DNA from: Bdellovibrionales bacterium GWB1_55_8
GTDB taxonomy: Bacteria > Bdellovibrionota > UBA1018
NCBI GenBank assembly: GCA_001769835.1
Contig: MEPR01000030.1
Coordinates: 15,571-61,680 of the forward strand
Length of the DNA stretch: 46,110 nucleotides
Direction of reading: 5' to 3'
Below the pieces are notes generated by a model. It was not told where the DNA came from. It saw nothing but the letters and a program-made list of their open reading frames with translations, and searched no databases. Position numbers and translations under genes: made by a program. Position 1 is the first letter of the stretch; every line of letters begins with the position of its first letter. Of the stretch, positions 28,700 to 37,258 are shown one piece after another.

Positions 28700-28729
28700 T
28701 TGACTCCTCATGAATCGGGCCGGTACAAT
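28700..28729 (+). promoter_or_regulatory. Sigma-70 promoter giving a leaderless transcript
   Basis: TTGACT (28700-28705), 18-nt spacer, TACAAT (28724-28729), then 6 nt to ATG 28736. The predicted start is the A of the ATG, with no room for a ribosome site. Confidence 0.55.
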
Positions 28730-28735
28730 CAGACT

Positions 28736-29785
28736 ATGAAGAAGTCGCCCTCAAAAAAAGGCGTGGAACGAAGAAAGAAGCCCAGAGGCCGTACTGCATC
28801 GCGTCCAAAGGCTGAAGCACGCCCCGAGGCGTCAACCCAAGTCCAGGCTGGTATTCCTCGTGCTGCCCATCCCGATGTCCAGAAAGATGTCTGTCGGCAC
28901 TGTGGCAATAAAATCGGCGAGAATGATAAAGCCCTGTTCGTTGAGGAAGAGGTTGGACGGATATTCTGTTCGGAGGAGTGTATTTCGGCTTATTTTTCCC
29001 CGGACGTCCAGCGGCTTGAAAAGGAATATTTTCGCGTCGTGTCCGATGATGACCTTACGTCCAAAGAGCGAGAGCAGTATGGCCATCTGCGCTGGATCAC
29101 GCTTCAGGAGCCTGATGAAATCTGGCGCCAAAAGACGCTGAGTGGTGATTACCGCTATACGCTCATTTCGCAGTTTCAGCCGGGCAGCCGAACGATCTGG
29201 TCCGTCTGTGTTTGCCTTTTCCTGCAGGGGGAGCCCAGTTTTCTTTATCTCGCTTTTACCTCGCGCAATGCCGCAGCGGTGGATCATTACCGCAGGGGTG
29301 AGCGCATGGAGAGAATGCGAGTGGGCGCGACCGGCGGTGCAGAGGCTTACTCGAGTCCGGATAGTTCATCGAACGACGGAGAAGGCGGGGGGGCGATGGA
29401 CCGCCTGGCACCCTCCTGGACTGACGACGAAACGTTGCGCGCGCAGATTTCACAGGAGCGTAAAACCACGGATATCGATCCATCAGAATTCGCCGGGTTT
29501 TCCAAGTATTTGGAGCCGACTCTTGAGGAACCCGATGAGGTCTGGAGTATGGATCTTGGCGAACCTGAACCGGTTCGCATTTTTCAATTCATCCGGCGTT
29601 TCGAAGAACAGGGAACCGGGCCGTTCTGGTACATCATCGTTGCCAAGGAAACCGAGTCGGATGAAGAGCTCGAAGTACTTGACGCCTTCCCGACGCGCGA
29701 TCCGCAGATGGTCGACAGCTTCCGTCGTGGTGAACAGCATGTCGGTGAAATGGAACCTCCGGCAAGCTCCCGAGTGGTCCACTAA
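28736..29785 (+). CDS. Zinc-finger protein with duplicated C-terminal module
   Basis: 349 residues from ATG 28736; the TTG at 28700 is the -35 box. A very basic N-terminus (KKSPSKKGVERRKKPRGR) precedes a Cys53-x2-Cys56-x21-Cys78-x3-Cys82 zinc finger of the FCS/TRASH type (CRHCGN, IFCSEEC). Two related modules follow (about 115-190 and 255-345), each with EPDE[I/V]W, an aromatic FQF or FQP strand, a Trp-centred hydrophobic strand and a final RRGE. They recall the barrel-like PBECR/BECR fold of some phage and toxin proteins, but that is weak pattern similarity only. Cytoplasmic. Nucleic-acid binding is a reasonable guess from the basic tail and finger. Confidence 0.7.
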   Translation: MKKSPSKKGVERRKKPRGRTASRPKAEARPEASTQVQAGIPRAAHPDVQKDVCRHCGNKIGENDKALFVEEEVGRIFCSEECISAYFSPDVQRLEKEYFRVVSDDDLTSKEREQYGHLRWITLQEPDEIWRQKTLSGDYRYTLISQFQPGSRTIWSVCVCLFLQGEPSFLYLAFTSRNAAAVDHYRRGERMERMRVGATGGAEAYSSPDSSSNDGEGGGAMDRLAPSWTDDETLRAQISQERKTTDIDPSEFAGFSKYLEPTLEEPDEVWSMDLGEPEPVRIFQFIRRFEEQGTGPFWYIIVAKETESDEELEVLDAFPTRDPQMVDSFRRGEQHVGEMEPPASSRVVH

Positions 29786-33251: not shown

Positions 33252-35648
33252 ATGAAACGCACCTCTCTTTTTCATGCTCTATTAGCGGCTTTCCTCCTGA
33301 CTGCGTCGGTTCGCGTCCATGCGGTGGATGTTCTCTACGATGCTGCGAGCACTTTCTTCAATCCGGAGGACAAGACGCGTTTAGGAATTGAGGTCGAATT
33401 TAAGGGGCTTTCGCCCGAAGCTTCGGCAAATGAGGTTGCGAGAGTTCTGGGTGGCGAAGTGGGGACCCGCACAAGCACCATCAAGACTGACATCAAAGGT
33501 TACGGGGCTGACGGCAAGCCGATCTATAACGAGTTCACTTCAACTCAATATGTCGTGAAGGACAGCTCCATCGGAGACGTGGTGCTCAAACTCGAGACGA
33601 ACCAGATCGATGACGTTGGCAAGATTGATTACGATAAGATGATCGTCGAACTCATCACCGAACCTATTCAGTATCCCCAGGTTGAAAAGCTGGAAGACGC
33701 ACTGAAAGGTCTTGAGCGCATCGGAGCAAAAGGGACCGACCGCTATACAGCGGTATCCACTCAGGTGAACATGGAGATGTTTGCCGGTAGAAGAGAGGAC
33801 GTCAGTGTGCCGAAAATTCTGGACCTGATGCGCGCCTATCTGCGACCGGAGCACAAGGCTCAGATTGATGCACACCTCAAGGTTCCCGCGTTAAGAAAGC
33901 CGTATGTGAGTTCTTATTCTGACGGATTCATGAAAAAGCTCCTCGATCCTCAATACAAACCGACAGAGAGGGAGCTTTTCGACGATTTCTTTTATCGCCA
34001 AAGCATGGAAAGGCTCGGCGACAAGAAGGCGTGGACTGATCCTCTGAAGAAAGTTCAGGCACGTTTTTTTGCACATCCCAATCCGATCGTGCCTTCCGTT
34101 GTGAAGCAAAACTCTCTTCGCGTTTCGTCGTTACTGATGTGGATGTTTCCCGATGATCCGGTCACACACCTGATCCATGACGCCGGCTGGGCCGTTCCAC
34201 GTCCGCTTGTGGAGTTTCGCGAATGGAACAATACGTTCACGGCGGCTGAACCGGCGCGTCAGGCGCTCGGACTCAAAGAAGCCGCGTATAAGTACGGTTA
34301 TTTTGATCACGATAGCCTCATGCAGGAGTTGACGGGCATGGACGGGAAAGTGCTGCCCAAACTTCGTCGCCATGTCAATGCCGACGTGGCTAAGGGTCAG
34401 CCGACGACGTTCCGTTACTATCTGGGAGATCCGGCAACCGTGGAGCGCGCAGAGTACACGATGCATACACGTCAAGCCTACAAGGGGGAAGTTGTCGGTT
34501 TTCTGAATGCGAATGGTTACGGAACGAAAAGCCTCTTGATTCCAGGGGAAAGCGTCGTCATGCACCGGCGGCCCTACCATCGGTACAGCGTCATGGGTAA
34601 GTACAATCCCGGATTGATCAACGCGAATATCGCTCAGGTTCTTGAGAACAAATACGCCGAATATCGTTTTTTCAACGAGTATGCTCCGGGTTCCATGTCT
34701 CGGACCGAAATCCTTTCTGACCTGACGGATAAGTCCAAAAACGTCCGAAAAGTCGTCGGTAAACTGAATGAAAAGTTCCCGAAAGGCTGGGTCCTCAAGG
34801 GGGTCTGGGATCTTGGATCCGAGAAAGACATCATTACAGACAAGGTGGATGTCATTGGCGAAGTTGAAAAATACCAGGCCAGTGACTTTGATGTATATCG
34901 GAACGAGTTGCTTTCAGATAAGGCCCTCGCCGACGCGGCACCGGAATATCTCAACAGTGAGCTCAAGAAACATCCTGGATATAAAGGGTGGAAGCTTTCC
35001 CAGGTGTTCAAAAAACCTGAACTCAGCATGGTCCAGGAGCGGGTGAATATTAAAACGGAGTTCAGGGTGGAAGCCCTGGCTGGAAAGGTTCTTGGCGGTG
35101 GTTCGACCGTCGATCGTTATTCGTATGTTTATCTATTGAATGACACGGCAGGGGAATACAAAGCGCCTCCAAAAGTGGATGTAAAAAAAGTTGAACAGTT
35201 CGCGCAAAAGGTTCTCGATCAGCTTCCGGAAAATCTTCGCGGCATGCCCATGGGAATGGATATCGCTCTTCTTGAGGACGGCACGGCGGTCATGATCGAG
35301 TCCAACCCCGGAGGAAACTCCAACTTCCTTTACGAGGAGTTCGAGGAGAGTGCTGAGGAATTGGCTAAGTTTCTCAAGCAGTATCCCGCTCAAGTCAAAG
35401 CCGGGCGTGTTCATGAGGGTTTGTCGCCCGAAGAGCAGATGAAATGGATCGATCAGAAGTTCAAGGACTGGGGCATTCATCCCGCCAAGCAGTACCCGGG
35501 TTTCACGTTCCTGAAGGATCGCGTCCAGGACAAGGAGTTCAGGCCAAGCCCTCCGAATCCTCGTAATTACGATCTACGACACGCGCCGTGCGGACTTGTG
35601 GAAACGATCCGGGGCTATCTCGCGCCAGTGCCTGCGCTCGTGAAATGA
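33252..35648 (+). CDS. Exported amidoligase/ATP-grasp two-domain protein
   Basis: 798 residues. A clear Sec signal peptide (MKRTSLFHALLAAFLLTASVR, cleavage after VHA24) precedes an amidoligase (COOH-NH2 ligase, glutamine-synthetase-like fold) domain: GIEVEFKG at 45-52, ELITEPI at 133-139, STQVNMEMF at 169-177, LVEFREWN at 319-326. The second half is ATP-grasp-like: GWVLKGVWDLGSEKDI (512-527), VQERVNIKTEFRVEALAGKVLGG (594-616), GMDIALLEDGTAVMIESNPGGNS (668-690), with the Glu/Asn metal ligands in ESN. Both folds make amide bonds using ATP and are known to be linked in peptide-tag or metabolite biosynthesis. Export is odd because the periplasm lacks ATP. GTG 33249 is an alternative start. Next gene: BPL_N-type protein. 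Confidence 0.78.
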   Translation: MKRTSLFHALLAAFLLTASVRVHAVDVLYDAASTFFNPEDKTRLGIEVEFKGLSPEASANEVARVLGGEVGTRTSTIKTDIKGYGADGKPIYNEFTSTQYVVKDSSIGDVVLKLETNQIDDVGKIDYDKMIVELITEPIQYPQVEKLEDALKGLERIGAKGTDRYTAVSTQVNMEMFAGRREDVSVPKILDLMRAYLRPEHKAQIDAHLKVPALRKPYVSSYSDGFMKKLLDPQYKPTERELFDDFFYRQSMERLGDKKAWTDPLKKVQARFFAHPNPIVPSVVKQNSLRVSSLLMWMFPDDPVTHLIHDAGWAVPRPLVEFREWNNTFTAAEPARQALGLKEAAYKYGYFDHDSLMQELTGMDGKVLPKLRRHVNADVAKGQPTTFRYYLGDPATVERAEYTMHTRQAYKGEVVGFLNANGYGTKSLLIPGESVVMHRRPYHRYSVMGKYNPGLINANIAQVLENKYAEYRFFNEYAPGSMSRTEILSDLTDKSKNVRKVVGKLNEKFPKGWVLKGVWDLGSEKDIITDKVDVIGEVEKYQASDFDVYRNELLSDKALADAAPEYLNSELKKHPGYKGWKLSQVFKKPELSMVQERVNIKTEFRVEALAGKVLGGGSTVDRYSYVYLLNDTAGEYKAPPKVDVKKVEQFAQKVLDQLPENLRGMPMGMDIALLEDGTAVMIESNPGGNSNFLYEEFEESAEELAKFLKQYPAQVKAGRVHEGLSPEEQMKWIDQKFKDWGIHPAKQYPGFTFLKDRVQDKEFRPSPPNPRNYDLRHAPCGLVETIRGYLAPVPALVK

Positions 35649-35719
35649 AATACGATTTTAAAATTTGAAAAAGCCCGCGTTTTTTGCTCTTCTGGAGTGA
35701 GTATCTCCGGGAGAATAGA

Positions 35720-36442
35720 ATGCTTCAGGCGTTGGCATCCGTGATTTTCTTTTTCGCTTGTACGATGGTTGCATGTTCTGCCACGGCGGAAGCTCCGCTC
35801 GCACTCGTCTACGATGATGTCGGGGTTTGTGCAGAAGAGTGCGCGCTTCACGCGGCAAATGCAGCGAAGCTCGCGGGATTTCAAGTCGTCACCGTCTCCG
35901 CCGCGACTCTTGATCAGCATCTGAGCGATAAAGCGAGTGTCTGGATTCAGCCCGGCGGGAATGCCATCGAGGTCAGTGATCATCTCGGAGTGGAAAAGCT
36001 TTCACTCATCAGGAATTTTGTGTCGAGGGGGGGCGGTTACATCGGATTCTGCGCCGGAGGCTTCCTGGCCGATGTGACCGTGGATGATGCCGGGTTGAAG
36101 CCCGGATTGGGCATCATCCCTGTCAGCGCTTACGAATATCTGGAAAATGATACTCAAGCGCAGGTTCTGCCGATCCTGTGGGAAGGCTTCCCGAAACACC
36201 TGTTTTTCCAGGAAGGCGCCGCATTTGCTTCAGGTTTAAAAGACCGGGTTCAGGTGATCGCGACCTACAGCGAGGGTGCGGCGGCTGTTATTCAGGCGGT
36301 TTTTGGCAAAGGAATCGTCATTGCAAGTGGGGTGCACCCCGAAGCTCCGGAGCAGTGGCTTGAGCATGAAGGTTTGAGCAGTCCGGATGGTACGCACGAA
36401 GATCTGGCCGCAGAGCTTGTCATGCGTGCTTCCAGGAAATAG
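35720..36442 (+). CDS. Exported BPL_N/class I glutamine-amidotransferase-like protein
   Basis: 240 residues from ATG 35720 (ribosome site GGGAG). The signal peptide MLQALASVIFFFACTMVAC could end at a lipobox-like MVAC or at ATA/AEA. The mature part matches the BPL_N domain, a class I amidotransferase-like fold: LALVYDDVGVC, VWIQPGGNAIEVS, then GGGYIGFCAGGFLADV with the nucleophile-position Cys111, and HPEAPEQW at the His position near the end. Such proteins are found next to amidoligase and ATP-grasp genes. It follows the amidoligase gene by 71 nt on the same strand, so a shared pathway (peptide cleavage or ammonia release) is likely. Confidence 0.78.
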   Translation: MLQALASVIFFFACTMVACSATAEAPLALVYDDVGVCAEECALHAANAAKLAGFQVVTVSAATLDQHLSDKASVWIQPGGNAIEVSDHLGVEKLSLIRNFVSRGGGYIGFCAGGFLADVTVDDAGLKPGLGIIPVSAYEYLENDTQAQVLPILWEGFPKHLFFQEGAAFASGLKDRVQVIATYSEGAAAVIQAVFGKGIVIASGVHPEAPEQWLEHEGLSSPDGTHEDLAAELVMRASRK

Positions 36443-36458
36443 CGGACGGCTTTTTGTT

Positions 36459-36480
36459 CCTGCTGTATAGTTTCAGCAGG
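36459..36480 (+). promoter_or_regulatory. Hairpin that covers the ribosome site of the barrel gene
   Basis: CCTGCTG (36459-36465) and CAGCAGG (36474-36480), 8-nt loop TATAGTTT. The 3' arm includes the first bases of AGGAG (36478-36482), the ribosome site for ATG 36491. It could regulate translation or be a weak terminator; the loop TATAGT also looks like a -10. Confidence 0.4.
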
Positions 36481-36490
36481 AGCTCATTTT

Positions 36491-37258
36491 ATGGCGGTCA
36501 TTCGGTTTCGCGGTCTCGGGGTGTTCACGGCCGTTTTTACGTTGTTCTGTTCGACGTTTGTGTGGGCGAGAGGTGCCGGGGTTCACGAGGATCTTTCCGC
36601 CGGTGTGGTTTATCCCTCAAATAACGATTCGGTTTTGTTGAATCCAGCAGCGCTCGGGAGACTTTCTGGCGCTCTTCTGGATGTGGCAGCCCTGGTTCCT
36701 GAGGCTTCGGATGCCGGTCTGCTTGGCAGCTACTCCTATGCGGGAAGAGGCGTGGGTGTGGGTGCCGGAGCGCTGGCCTTCGGAGATGATATTTTAGGGT
36801 TTGCGGGTTTCGGTTTTGGCATAGGGCCGTTTCAGCTTGGAGCCTCGGTGGCTTCACAGGTTGGCTCGGGTGCAGGTTCTCCTCGACTGGGTGTGGGTGC
36901 GCGGTGGGGTGGAAATTCCGGCCCGGCGTTCGGAATCAGGGTGGATGATGTTTCCGTTGGTCTGGACGAAGCAACGGTCGGGATTGCCTGGTCCGGCGGT
37001 CAGGTTACATTTGAGATCGATTTGGATATTGCCAACGGGCTGAATTACGCATTTGCGCGTCCAGCGTTGGTGTTCAGGCCTTCGCGCGAGTTCTCGTTTT
37101 TGTTGGCATCGTCGTTTGAAGTGATGCCTGAATTTCAGCCGTCCCTGGATGATCTTCAGATCGGAGTCAATTACTGGCTCAGCAATGGCGTGGCTCTTTA
37201 TGGTATTTATAACGGAATGCAGGCGAAGCAGGTCGCCGGGCTGAAGTTCCGGTTTTGA
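36491..37258 (+). CDS. Outer-membrane beta-barrel protein (conjugal-transfer TraF/PorV-like)
   Basis: 255 residues. Signal peptide ending VWA before RGAG. Mature region starts with HEDLSAGVVYPSNNDSVLLNPAALGRL, a pattern seen in FadL/PorV/TraF-type barrel proteins, followed by Gly-rich alternating strands (VGVGAGALAFGDDILGFAGFGFGIG) and a final strand GLKFRF with terminal Phe. Located 49 nt after the BPL_N gene on the same strand; it may be the outer-membrane partner of the exported ligase system or an independent gene behind the ribosome-site hairpin. Confidence 0.7.
   Translation: MAVIRFRGLGVFTAVFTLFCSTFVWARGAGVHEDLSAGVVYPSNNDSVLLNPAALGRLSGALLDVAALVPEASDAGLLGSYSYAGRGVGVGAGALAFGDDILGFAGFGFGIGPFQLGASVASQVGSGAGSPRLGVGARWGGNSGPAFGIRVDDVSVGLDEATVGIAWSGGQVTFEIDLDIANGLNYAFARPALVFRPSREFSFLLASSFEVMPEFQPSLDDLQIGVNYWLSNGVALYGIYNGMQAKQVAGLKFRF

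What the first reader, a model, noticed from the sequence alone, without database searches (positions are those of the whole stretch)
33252..36442. Exported amidoligase/ATP-grasp fusion with an exported BPL_N partner
Seen: one 798-residue protein has an amidoligase domain and an ATP-grasp-like half behind a typical signal peptide. The next gene encodes an exported BPL_N protein with an intact Cys nucleophile position, and a barrel protein follows. Known: amidoligase, ATP-grasp and amidotransferase-like genes cluster in cytoplasmic peptide-ligation pathways. Inference: here the whole set is sent out of the cytoplasm, where ATP is lacking. It may act in another cell, in a compartment with ATP, or be exported folded with ligand. 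This is the best candidate in the window for an undescribed system (for example envelope peptide tagging or prey modification).
Basis: partly seen in the sequence, partly recalled or inferred. Interest (0 to 1): 0.85.

Follow-up and report, generated by a model that had tools for sequence, protein, structure and literature searches.

The report
Exported peptide-ligase and hydrolase pair
A bacterium related to Bdellovibrio secretes a two-domain enzyme of a kind that makes peptide bonds with ATP, together with a partner built like an amide-cutting enzyme, although ATP is normally absent outside cells; the same exported set recurs across the phylum, mostly with a short terminal cysteine tag, and appears to be undescribed.

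Summary
Observation confirmed, with one correction. The 798-aa protein (33252-35648) has a Sec-type signal peptide, an Amidoligase_2 domain above Pfam's cut-off, and an ATP-grasp module (R2K-like; below Pfam's cut-off here, above it in relatives; Foldseek's listed hits are almost all ATP-grasp enzymes). The next gene (35720-36442) is an exported BPL_N protein with the class-I amidotransferase Cys and HPE motif. The barrel gene is not part: it lies behind a terminator-like hairpin and is not conserved.

Relatives in four families of the phylum (Bdellovibrionota) keep the signal peptides, every ATP-grasp catalytic residue checked (10 of 10), and, in 8 of 11 neighbourhoods, an adjacent exported BPL_N gene. 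The fusion is one member of a phylum-wide set of exported amidoligase-fold proteins. Canonical cytosolic amidoligases in the same phylum lack signal peptides.

New here: most exported ligases carry a cysteine in a short C-x-x-hydrophobic tag at the C-terminus or the mature N-terminus (C-terminal Cys in 15 of 18 proteins of a second set; about 0.7 expected).

Best reading: an exported ATP-dependent amide ligase with its opposing hydrolase, working where another cell supplies ATP. Substrate and ATP source are inferred, not shown; the lifestyle of this MAG is unresolved.

The parts
33252..35648 (+). exported amidoligase/ATP-grasp fusion protein, 798 aa
   Evidence: ORF, Pfam, full-length orthologues at 36-41% identity
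33252..33323 (+). Sec-type signal peptide MKRTSLFHALLAAFLLTASVRVHA
   Evidence: sequence; heuristic score; signal peptides at the same place in L017, L020, L021, L069, L070, L073, L074
33372..34001 (+). Amidoligase_2 (COOH-NH2 ligase fold) domain, residues 41-250; GIEVEF motif with E47 and E49
   Evidence: PF12224 64.7 bits; E49 15/15, E47 14/15, E133 14/14, N173 15/15 conserved
34527..35387 (+). pre-ATP-grasp and ATP-grasp module, residues 426-712; K516, R605, D670, E683-x-N685
   Evidence: R2K_2/R2K_3 sub-threshold, over the cut-off in L069 and L070; catalytic residues 10/10; Foldseek to ATP-grasp enzymes
35589..35591 (+). Cys780, the only cysteine of the protein, 19 residues from the C-terminus (APCGLVETI); weak form of the terminal Cys tag
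   Evidence: the strict tag pattern C-x-x-[LVM]-[FL] is not met here but is in orthologues L020, L021, L069, L070, L071
35720..36442 (+). exported BPL_N (class-I amidotransferase fold) protein, 240 aa
   Evidence: PF09825 65.5 bits; adjacent exported BPL_N in 8 of 11 ligase neighbourhoods
35720..35794 (+). N-terminal export signal of the BPL_N protein (signal peptide, possibly lipoprotein type with TMVAC)
   Evidence: sequence; 33 of 42 relatives flagged as exported by the heuristic, this one not
35828..35842 (+). Cys37-x3-Cys41 pair after the first strand, likely a disulphide in an oxidising compartment
   Evidence: invariant in alignment A2; a C-x(2-4)-C pair in 32 of 42 BPL_N relatives
36050..36052 (+). 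nucleophile Cys111 in GFCAGG
   Evidence: invariant in A2; G-x-C-[AG]-G in 42 of 42 relatives
36335..36343 (+). HPE motif (catalytic His and Glu of class-I amidotransferases)
   Evidence: invariant in A2; 41 of 42 relatives
36456..36483 (+). terminator-like hairpin that closes the two-gene unit
   Evidence: 10-pair stem; sites of this kind are only slightly above the shuffled number, so weak by itself

Best explanation
The two genes encode an exported amide/peptide ligase and its opposing hydrolase. Shown: both proteins carry export signals that are conserved in relatives; both ligase domains keep their catalytic residues; the BPL_N partner keeps the Cys and the HPE motif of class-I amidotransferase-fold hydrolases and is repeatedly the neighbour; the ligase belongs to a phylum-wide set of exported amidoligase-fold proteins, most with a cysteine tag at one terminus. 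Inferred: after Sec export the amidoligase domain and the ATP-grasp domain each activate a carboxylate with ATP and join amino acids or short peptides to an acceptor outside the producer's cytoplasm; BPL_N trims or removes the product, as RimB does for RimK. ATP comes from another cell (a prey or host whose contents leak into a shared compartment, as in the bdelloplast of Bdellovibrio), not from the producer's own periplasm. The terminal Cys peptide, usually one per polypeptide, sorts or tethers the enzymes to a common partner.
For: Domains. Export conserved in orthologues and paralogues. ATP-grasp K516, R605, D670, E683, N685 invariant in all 10 sequences covering them; amidoligase E49, E133, N173 invariant: not what a dead, repurposed fold would show. 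BPL_N adjacent in the window, L021, L020, L023, L030 and L069 (directly downstream) and L018 and L072 (convergent), across families f1, f2, f13 and f18, although genomes carry only a few BPL_N genes (3 in this genome). CX3C pair in exported BPL_N fits an oxidising compartment. In the same phylum, canonical cytosolic Amidoligase_2 genes lack signal peptides, and three checked have a Peptidase_C26/GATase gene as neighbour, so ligase plus class-I-amidotransferase-fold hydrolase is a recurring pairing that here is exported. Divergent amidoligases with a complete start are mostly exported or lipoproteins. Terminal tag: strict motif in 16 of 41 exported ligases against 1 of 158 other exported proteins, and none in about 25,000 interior residues; Cys in the last 25 aa in 15 of 18 proteins of a second set (expected 0.7). 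Predators of this phylum grow inside another cell and use its contents (PMC7529429; PMC12724312).
Against: No ATP source is shown. The lifestyle of this MAG is unresolved: it has HMG-CoA reductase and lacks DXP reductoisomerase, a trait enriched in predators, but lacks tryptophan dioxygenase, reported as the most predator-specific gene. BPL_N also occurs widely without an amidoligase nearby, so it is not an obligate partner. Two paralogues in this genome have a damaged or missing amidoligase domain (L017 E47K; L018 domain lost). The second Lys that names the R2K clade is not universal (K531: T in L020, E in L022 and L070). Signal peptides were called with a home-made heuristic, not SignalP. 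The ligase AlphaFold model is poor overall.
Confidence: 0.4

Rival explanations
1. Own-envelope modification: the pair works in the producer's periplasm or surface and ligates amino acids to its own peptidoglycan, a capsule or a surface protein, with ATP or another activated donor that reaches the periplasm by leakage or a dedicated carrier.
For: Export and the CX3C pair fit a periplasmic home; several related amidoligases look like lipoproteins, which would tie them to the envelope (L190, L196, L197, L199, L200, L203). Amidoligases and ATP-grasp enzymes are known for capsule and peptidoglycan work (established knowledge).
Against: No bacterial periplasmic ATP pool adequate for such ligases is known to me; no ATP/ADP carrier of the TLC family was found in this genome, but that search had no positive control. 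No envelope-synthesis genes recur next to the pair.
Confidence: 0.22
2. Repurposed folds: the exported domains no longer ligate but bind peptides, nucleotides or envelope polymers, and the Cys tag holds them on a surface.
For: Absence of ATP outside the cytoplasm; in paralogue L018 the amidoligase domain is lost and in L017 one active-site Glu is Lys.
Against: Five ATP-grasp catalytic residues invariant in all 10 sequences, and amidoligase E49, E133 and N173 invariant, at 28-41% overall identity; the BPL_N nucleophile motif is kept in 42 of 42.
Confidence: 0.2
3. Injected effector: the proteins pass the producer's envelope and act inside the cytoplasm of a prey or host cell, where ATP is plentiful; the terminal Cys tag is the second-step delivery signal.
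For: R2K clade members of the CDC123 family have been proposed as secreted effectors or toxin accessories (PMC4431377); the tag is confined to these exported proteins and close neighbours and sits at either end; the phylum is largely predatory (PMC12724312).
Against: No delivery apparatus is linked to the genes; CX3C in the BPL_N partner argues for an oxidising place of action for that protein.
Confidence: 0.15
4. Wrong starts: the proteins are cytoplasmic and the N-terminal hydrophobic stretches are not signal peptides.
For: SignalP could not be run; about 30% of ORFs in a sample of one related genome are flagged by the heuristic, and the window's BPL_N is not flagged.
Against: Hydrophobic stretches with cleavage-like sites occur in orthologues, split versions, paralogues and the partner, while cytosolic amidoligases and RimK-like ATP-grasp proteins of the same phylum have none.
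Confidence: 0.03

Closest known systems
Amidoligase_2 (PF12224) / COOH-NH2 ligase superfamily
   Same: Fold and catalytic Glu residues; in this phylum canonical members also pair with a class-I amidotransferase-fold hydrolase gene (Peptidase_C26).
   Different: Canonical members here are cytosolic, about 320-345 aa and above 150 bits; this one is exported, divergent (65 bits), fused to ATP-grasp, and paired with BPL_N.
R2K clade of ATP-grasp enzymes (PF18299, PF14243; PMC4431377)
   Same: Closest Pfam models; the conserved RAGNYA Lys, the Asp and the E-x-N motif are present.
   Different: Sub-threshold for the window protein; the second Lys is not universal; fusion to an amidoligase behind a signal peptide is not described in the parts of that paper that were read.
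RimK/RimB and the Pseudomonas rlo operon (PMC12239564)
   Same: An ATP-grasp ligase encoded next to a peptidase that undoes its product; in rlo the peptidase is secreted.
   Different: RimK and RloC are cytosolic; here the ligase itself is exported and the hydrolase is BPL_N rather than a retropepsin.
BPL_N / class-I glutamine amidotransferase fold (PF09825)
   Same: G-x-C-[AG]-G nucleophile motif and HPE; Foldseek hits include PuuD (gamma-Glu-GABA hydrolase) and class-I amidotransferase subunits, weakly.
   Different: Exported, with a conserved CX3C pair; no biotin-protein-ligase domain.
C-terminal sorting tags such as PEP-CTERM or MYXO-CTERM (from memory)
   Same: Short terminal motif shared by exported proteins of different families.
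   Different: No hydrophobic helix or basic tail; occurs at either terminus; restricted to ligases and close neighbours; no NCBIfam model matches the tagged proteins tried.

Membership tests
Amidoligase_2 (PF12224) | profile match above the curated cut-off | tested here: met
   64.7 bits, cut-off 22
Amidoligase_2 (PF12224) | conserved catalytic Glu residues of the GxExE motif | tested here: met
   E47 and E49 present; 14/15 and 15/15 in relatives
Amidoligase_2 (PF12224) | ATP-dependent COOH-NH2 ligation | not testable with these tools
   needs enzyme assay
R2K ATP-grasp clade | profile match above the curated cut-off | tested here: inconclusive
   window 22.5 and 20.3 bits, below 26; relatives L069 and L070 above
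R2K ATP-grasp clade | RAGNYA strand-2 Lys, Asp, E-x-N (general ATP-grasp residues) | tested here: met
   K516, D670, E683-x-N685, plus R605, in 10/10
R2K ATP-grasp clade | second conserved Lys/Arg in the strand 2-3 loop | tested here: inconclusive
   K531 in the window and six relatives, but T in L020 and E in L022 and L070
R2K ATP-grasp clade | ATP-grasp fold | tested here: met
   Foldseek hits almost all ATP-grasp enzymes, best E 8e-5, although the overall model is poor
BPL_N / class-I amidotransferase fold | profile above cut-off with Cys nucleophile and His-x-Glu | tested here: met
   65.5 bits, cut-off 24.2; GFCAGG and HPE
Biotin protein ligase | BPL catalytic domain after BPL_N | tested here: not met
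   only BPL_N, plus a weak Peptidase_S51 match, in a 242-aa protein
RimK/RimB-type ligase-peptidase pair | cytosolic ATP-grasp ligase with retropepsin partner | tested here: not met
   ligase exported, partner BPL_N; works-like claim only
known anti-phage defence proteins | match in PADLOC-DB | tested here: not met
   no match at E up to 0.01

The most novel reading that the evidence does not exclude
Bdellovibrionota possess a dedicated extracytoplasmic amide-ligation toolkit: amidoligases, ATP-grasp and IucA/IucC-like ligases, with cysteine hydrolases as partners, exported by Sec and sorted by a new terminal cysteine tag (C-x-x-hydrophobic-hydrophobic, usually one per polypeptide, at either end), which runs on the ATP of a prey or host cell.
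Probability: 0.3. Interest if true: 0.92.

Novelty: new variant of a known kind. Interest (0 to 1): 0.78.

Why it matters
Peptide-bond-forming ligases that need ATP are treated as cytoplasmic enzymes. A lineage that exports them repeatedly, with active sites intact, implies either an ATP-containing extracytoplasmic compartment or remote action on another cell. In predatory bacteria it would make a testable candidate for how a predator chemically modifies its prey or seals itself off. The terminal Cys tag would be a new sorting signal and a handle for finding the rest of the set.

Tried and rejected
Barrel gene 36491-37258 as a third partner: no Pfam match, no counterpart in related loci, hairpin in between. 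Phage, plasmid or viral origin: no match. Defence system: no PADLOC match. Tat export or export with bound ligand: no twin-Arg motif in the signal peptides seen. Direct PDB sequence match: none for the ligase; only meaningless weak ones for BPL_N. Tag as a general feature of exported proteins in the phylum: rejected, 1 of 158 background exported proteins with the strict motif. R2K_3 search as a source of further exported ATP-grasp proteins: the new hits read out were cytosolic. Iyer 2009 (PMC3268129) is not held, so its gene neighbourhoods could not be checked for an exported version.
Full report
What is in the window. The 798-aa ORF 33252-35648 begins with a Sec-type signal peptide, then an Amidoligase_2 domain (residues 41-250, 64.7 bits against a cut-off of 22) and an ATP-grasp module (R2K_2 22.5 bits and R2K_3 20.3 bits, just under their cut-offs). 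A model from five sequences is poor overall (mean pLDDT 52), but its ATP-grasp half is usable, and the listed Foldseek hits are almost all ATP-grasp enzymes, chiefly peptide and carboxylate-amine ligases (MdnC, LysX/ArgX, Ddl, PsnB). The next gene, 35720-36442, is BPL_N (65.5 bits) with GFCAGG and HPE; its model resembles class-I amidotransferases and PuuD weakly. A terminator-like hairpin at 36456-36483 follows it; such sites are only slightly more frequent than in shuffles (8 found, 5.7 expected), so it is weak evidence alone. The barrel gene behind it has no counterpart in related loci and is dropped from the system.

Where it comes from. Near relatives in named collections are groundwater MAGs labelled Deltaproteobacteria and Bdellovibrio sp., so the phylum is Bdellovibrionota. 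From memory, the 3,988,594-base complete genome G229 has the size of B. bacteriovorus Tiberius, which would make family f13 Bdellovibrionaceae. A pattern scan of the GTDB genome collection found only four relatives of the fusion, all of this group; plasmids, phages and viral contigs have none.

Conservation of the pair. In 369 genomes of the phylum, 37 have matches to the family. Fusion proteins with complete or near-complete reading occur in families f1, f2, f13, f15, f18 and f24 (window, L017, L020, L021, L022/L023, L069, L070, L071, L072/L073). G227 has a split form in which ATP-grasp (448 aa) and amidoligase (369 aa) are adjacent genes, each with its own signal peptide (L074). Of 11 ligase neighbourhoods that can be read, eight have an adjacent exported BPL_N: directly downstream in the window, L021, L020, L023, L030 and L069, convergent in L018 and L072; absent in L017, L070 and L071. 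This genome holds three BPL_N genes, so repeated adjacency is not chance. BPL_N is nevertheless also common without an amidoligase beside it (83 of 369 genomes have BPL_N matches). In some of those places its neighbours are other enzymes of related chemistry: an IucA/IucC-like protein (sub-threshold, 23 bits against 25) and an exported amidoligase in L126, a transglutaminase-elicitor-like protein in L140 (and its homologue in L157), and a protein that reads as a nitrilase-type hydrolase in L145 (the nitrilase reading is by eye).

Are the active sites intact? Yes. In a 17-sequence alignment, K516, R605, D670, E683 and N685 of the ATP-grasp module are invariant in all 10 sequences that cover them; amidoligase E49 (15/15), E133 (14/14) and N173 (15/15) likewise. 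Exceptions are informative: paralogue L017 has Lys for E47, and paralogue L018 has lost the amidoligase domain but keeps ATP-grasp and a BPL_N neighbour. The BPL_N nucleophile motif is kept in 42 of 42 relatives, HPE in 41, and a C-x(2-4)-C pair suggestive of a disulphide in 32.

A wider exported set. A phylum census of Amidoligase_2 separates two kinds. Canonical members (most above 150 bits) that were read out have no signal peptide, and three checked have a Peptidase_C26/GATase neighbour. Divergent members are mostly exported or lipoproteins, apart from three cytosolic proteins (L192-L194), two of which start like helicases. So a ligase gene with a class-I-amidotransferase-fold hydrolase neighbour exists in a cytosolic and in an exported form in this phylum.

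A terminal cysteine tag. Most exported ligases carry, near one end, a Cys in a C-x-x-hydrophobic-hydrophobic context: at the extreme C-terminus (CEKLLL, CELLLTVR, CEKVFN, CGRVFS, CSAVFAGH, CKALFN, CQAVFQ, CSIVFM) or just behind the signal peptide (VCARVF, RCESVF, FCSAVF, QCELMF). The strict motif is at an end in 16 of 41 exported ligases, in none of about 25,000 interior residues, and in 1 of 158 other exported proteins from three genomes. The pattern was noticed in these same data, so a second set was fetched afterwards: 15 of 18 complete proteins have a Cys in the last 25 residues, with 0.7 expected from their own Cys content; the background rate is 26 of 158. Many of these 18 are homologous, so the count overstates independence; but three separate sequence clusters show it (18 of 18, 10 of 11, 4 of 4), and in the fourth the Cys sits mostly at the mature N-terminus instead. 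Split proteins usually have one tag each and fusions one in all, which fits sorting or tethering better than folding. The window's own tag is a weak form (APCGLVETI). No NCBIfam model matches eight exported proteins tried, most of them tagged, and no paper was found.

Mechanism. Two ATP-using ligase domains in one exported polypeptide, with an amide-hydrolase-like partner, most simply make and trim amide-linked amino-acid or peptide additions outside the producer. ATP is the open point. The phylum is described as largely predatory (PMC12724312) and Bdellovibrio grows in the prey periplasm using prey cytoplasm as its nutrient source (PMC7529429), so ATP from a dying neighbour is a natural source, but nothing here shows it. 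This genome has HMG-CoA reductase and no DXP reductoisomerase, a trait enriched in predators, but no tryptophan dioxygenase, reported as the most predator-specific gene. Its lifestyle therefore stays open.

Limits. Signal peptides were judged by a simple heuristic and by eye. The R2K assignment of the window protein rests on relatives and fold search. Genomes outside the phylum were not surveyed by family. Literature was limited to open-licence papers; Iyer et al. 2009 could not be read.

Noticed in passing
L074, L071, L126, L205, L206, L272, L286 and others: Short terminal cysteine tag (C-x-x-hydrophobic-hydrophobic) at the C-terminus or mature N-terminus of exported ligases and some neighbours, nearly absent from other exported proteins of the phylum.
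   Followed up: partly
L085:1865-4975, L087:5647-9342: Exported proteins of 1036 and 1231 aa with an aldehyde-dehydrogenase domain and an R2K ATP-grasp domain behind signal peptides; a similar 1122-aa exported protein in L093 has the ATP-grasp match.
   Followed up: no
L126:6379-13650: Exported BPL_N followed by an exported IucA/IucC-like protein (sub-threshold), an exported Amidoligase_2 protein and a 971-aa protein with amidoligase-like motifs; the last three each carry a C-terminal Cys tag.
   Followed up: partly
L074:2800-7496 and L145:3150-5862: Proteins without Pfam matches; L074:5250-7496 shows an amidoligase-like GFESEY motif by eye, and it and L145:3150-4487 share a conserved CTxW segment that looks like a cysteine-hydrolase motif.
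   Followed up: no
L140:7592-9058 and L157:4484-5977: Exported proteins next to exported BPL_N; the L140 one matches transglutaminase-elicitor and the L157 one is its homologue.
   Followed up: no
L193:4584-6923, L194:4660-7521: Apparently cytosolic proteins with a helicase-like N-terminus and an amidoligase domain.
   Followed up: no
L019:7260-10287 (contig C63 of the window's genome): Further paralogue of the ligase, broken by assembly gaps, with an unrelated-looking C-terminal half ending in a Cys tag-like GDCVRKAL.
   Followed up: no
L030:1354-4008: C-terminal end of a ligase continuing into a long extension of more than 800 aa without Pfam match, with an exported BPL_N gene directly downstream.
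   Followed up: no
window 28700-29785: PBECR2 (phage Barnase-EndoU-ColicinE5/D-RelE-like nuclease) domain protein.
   Followed up: no
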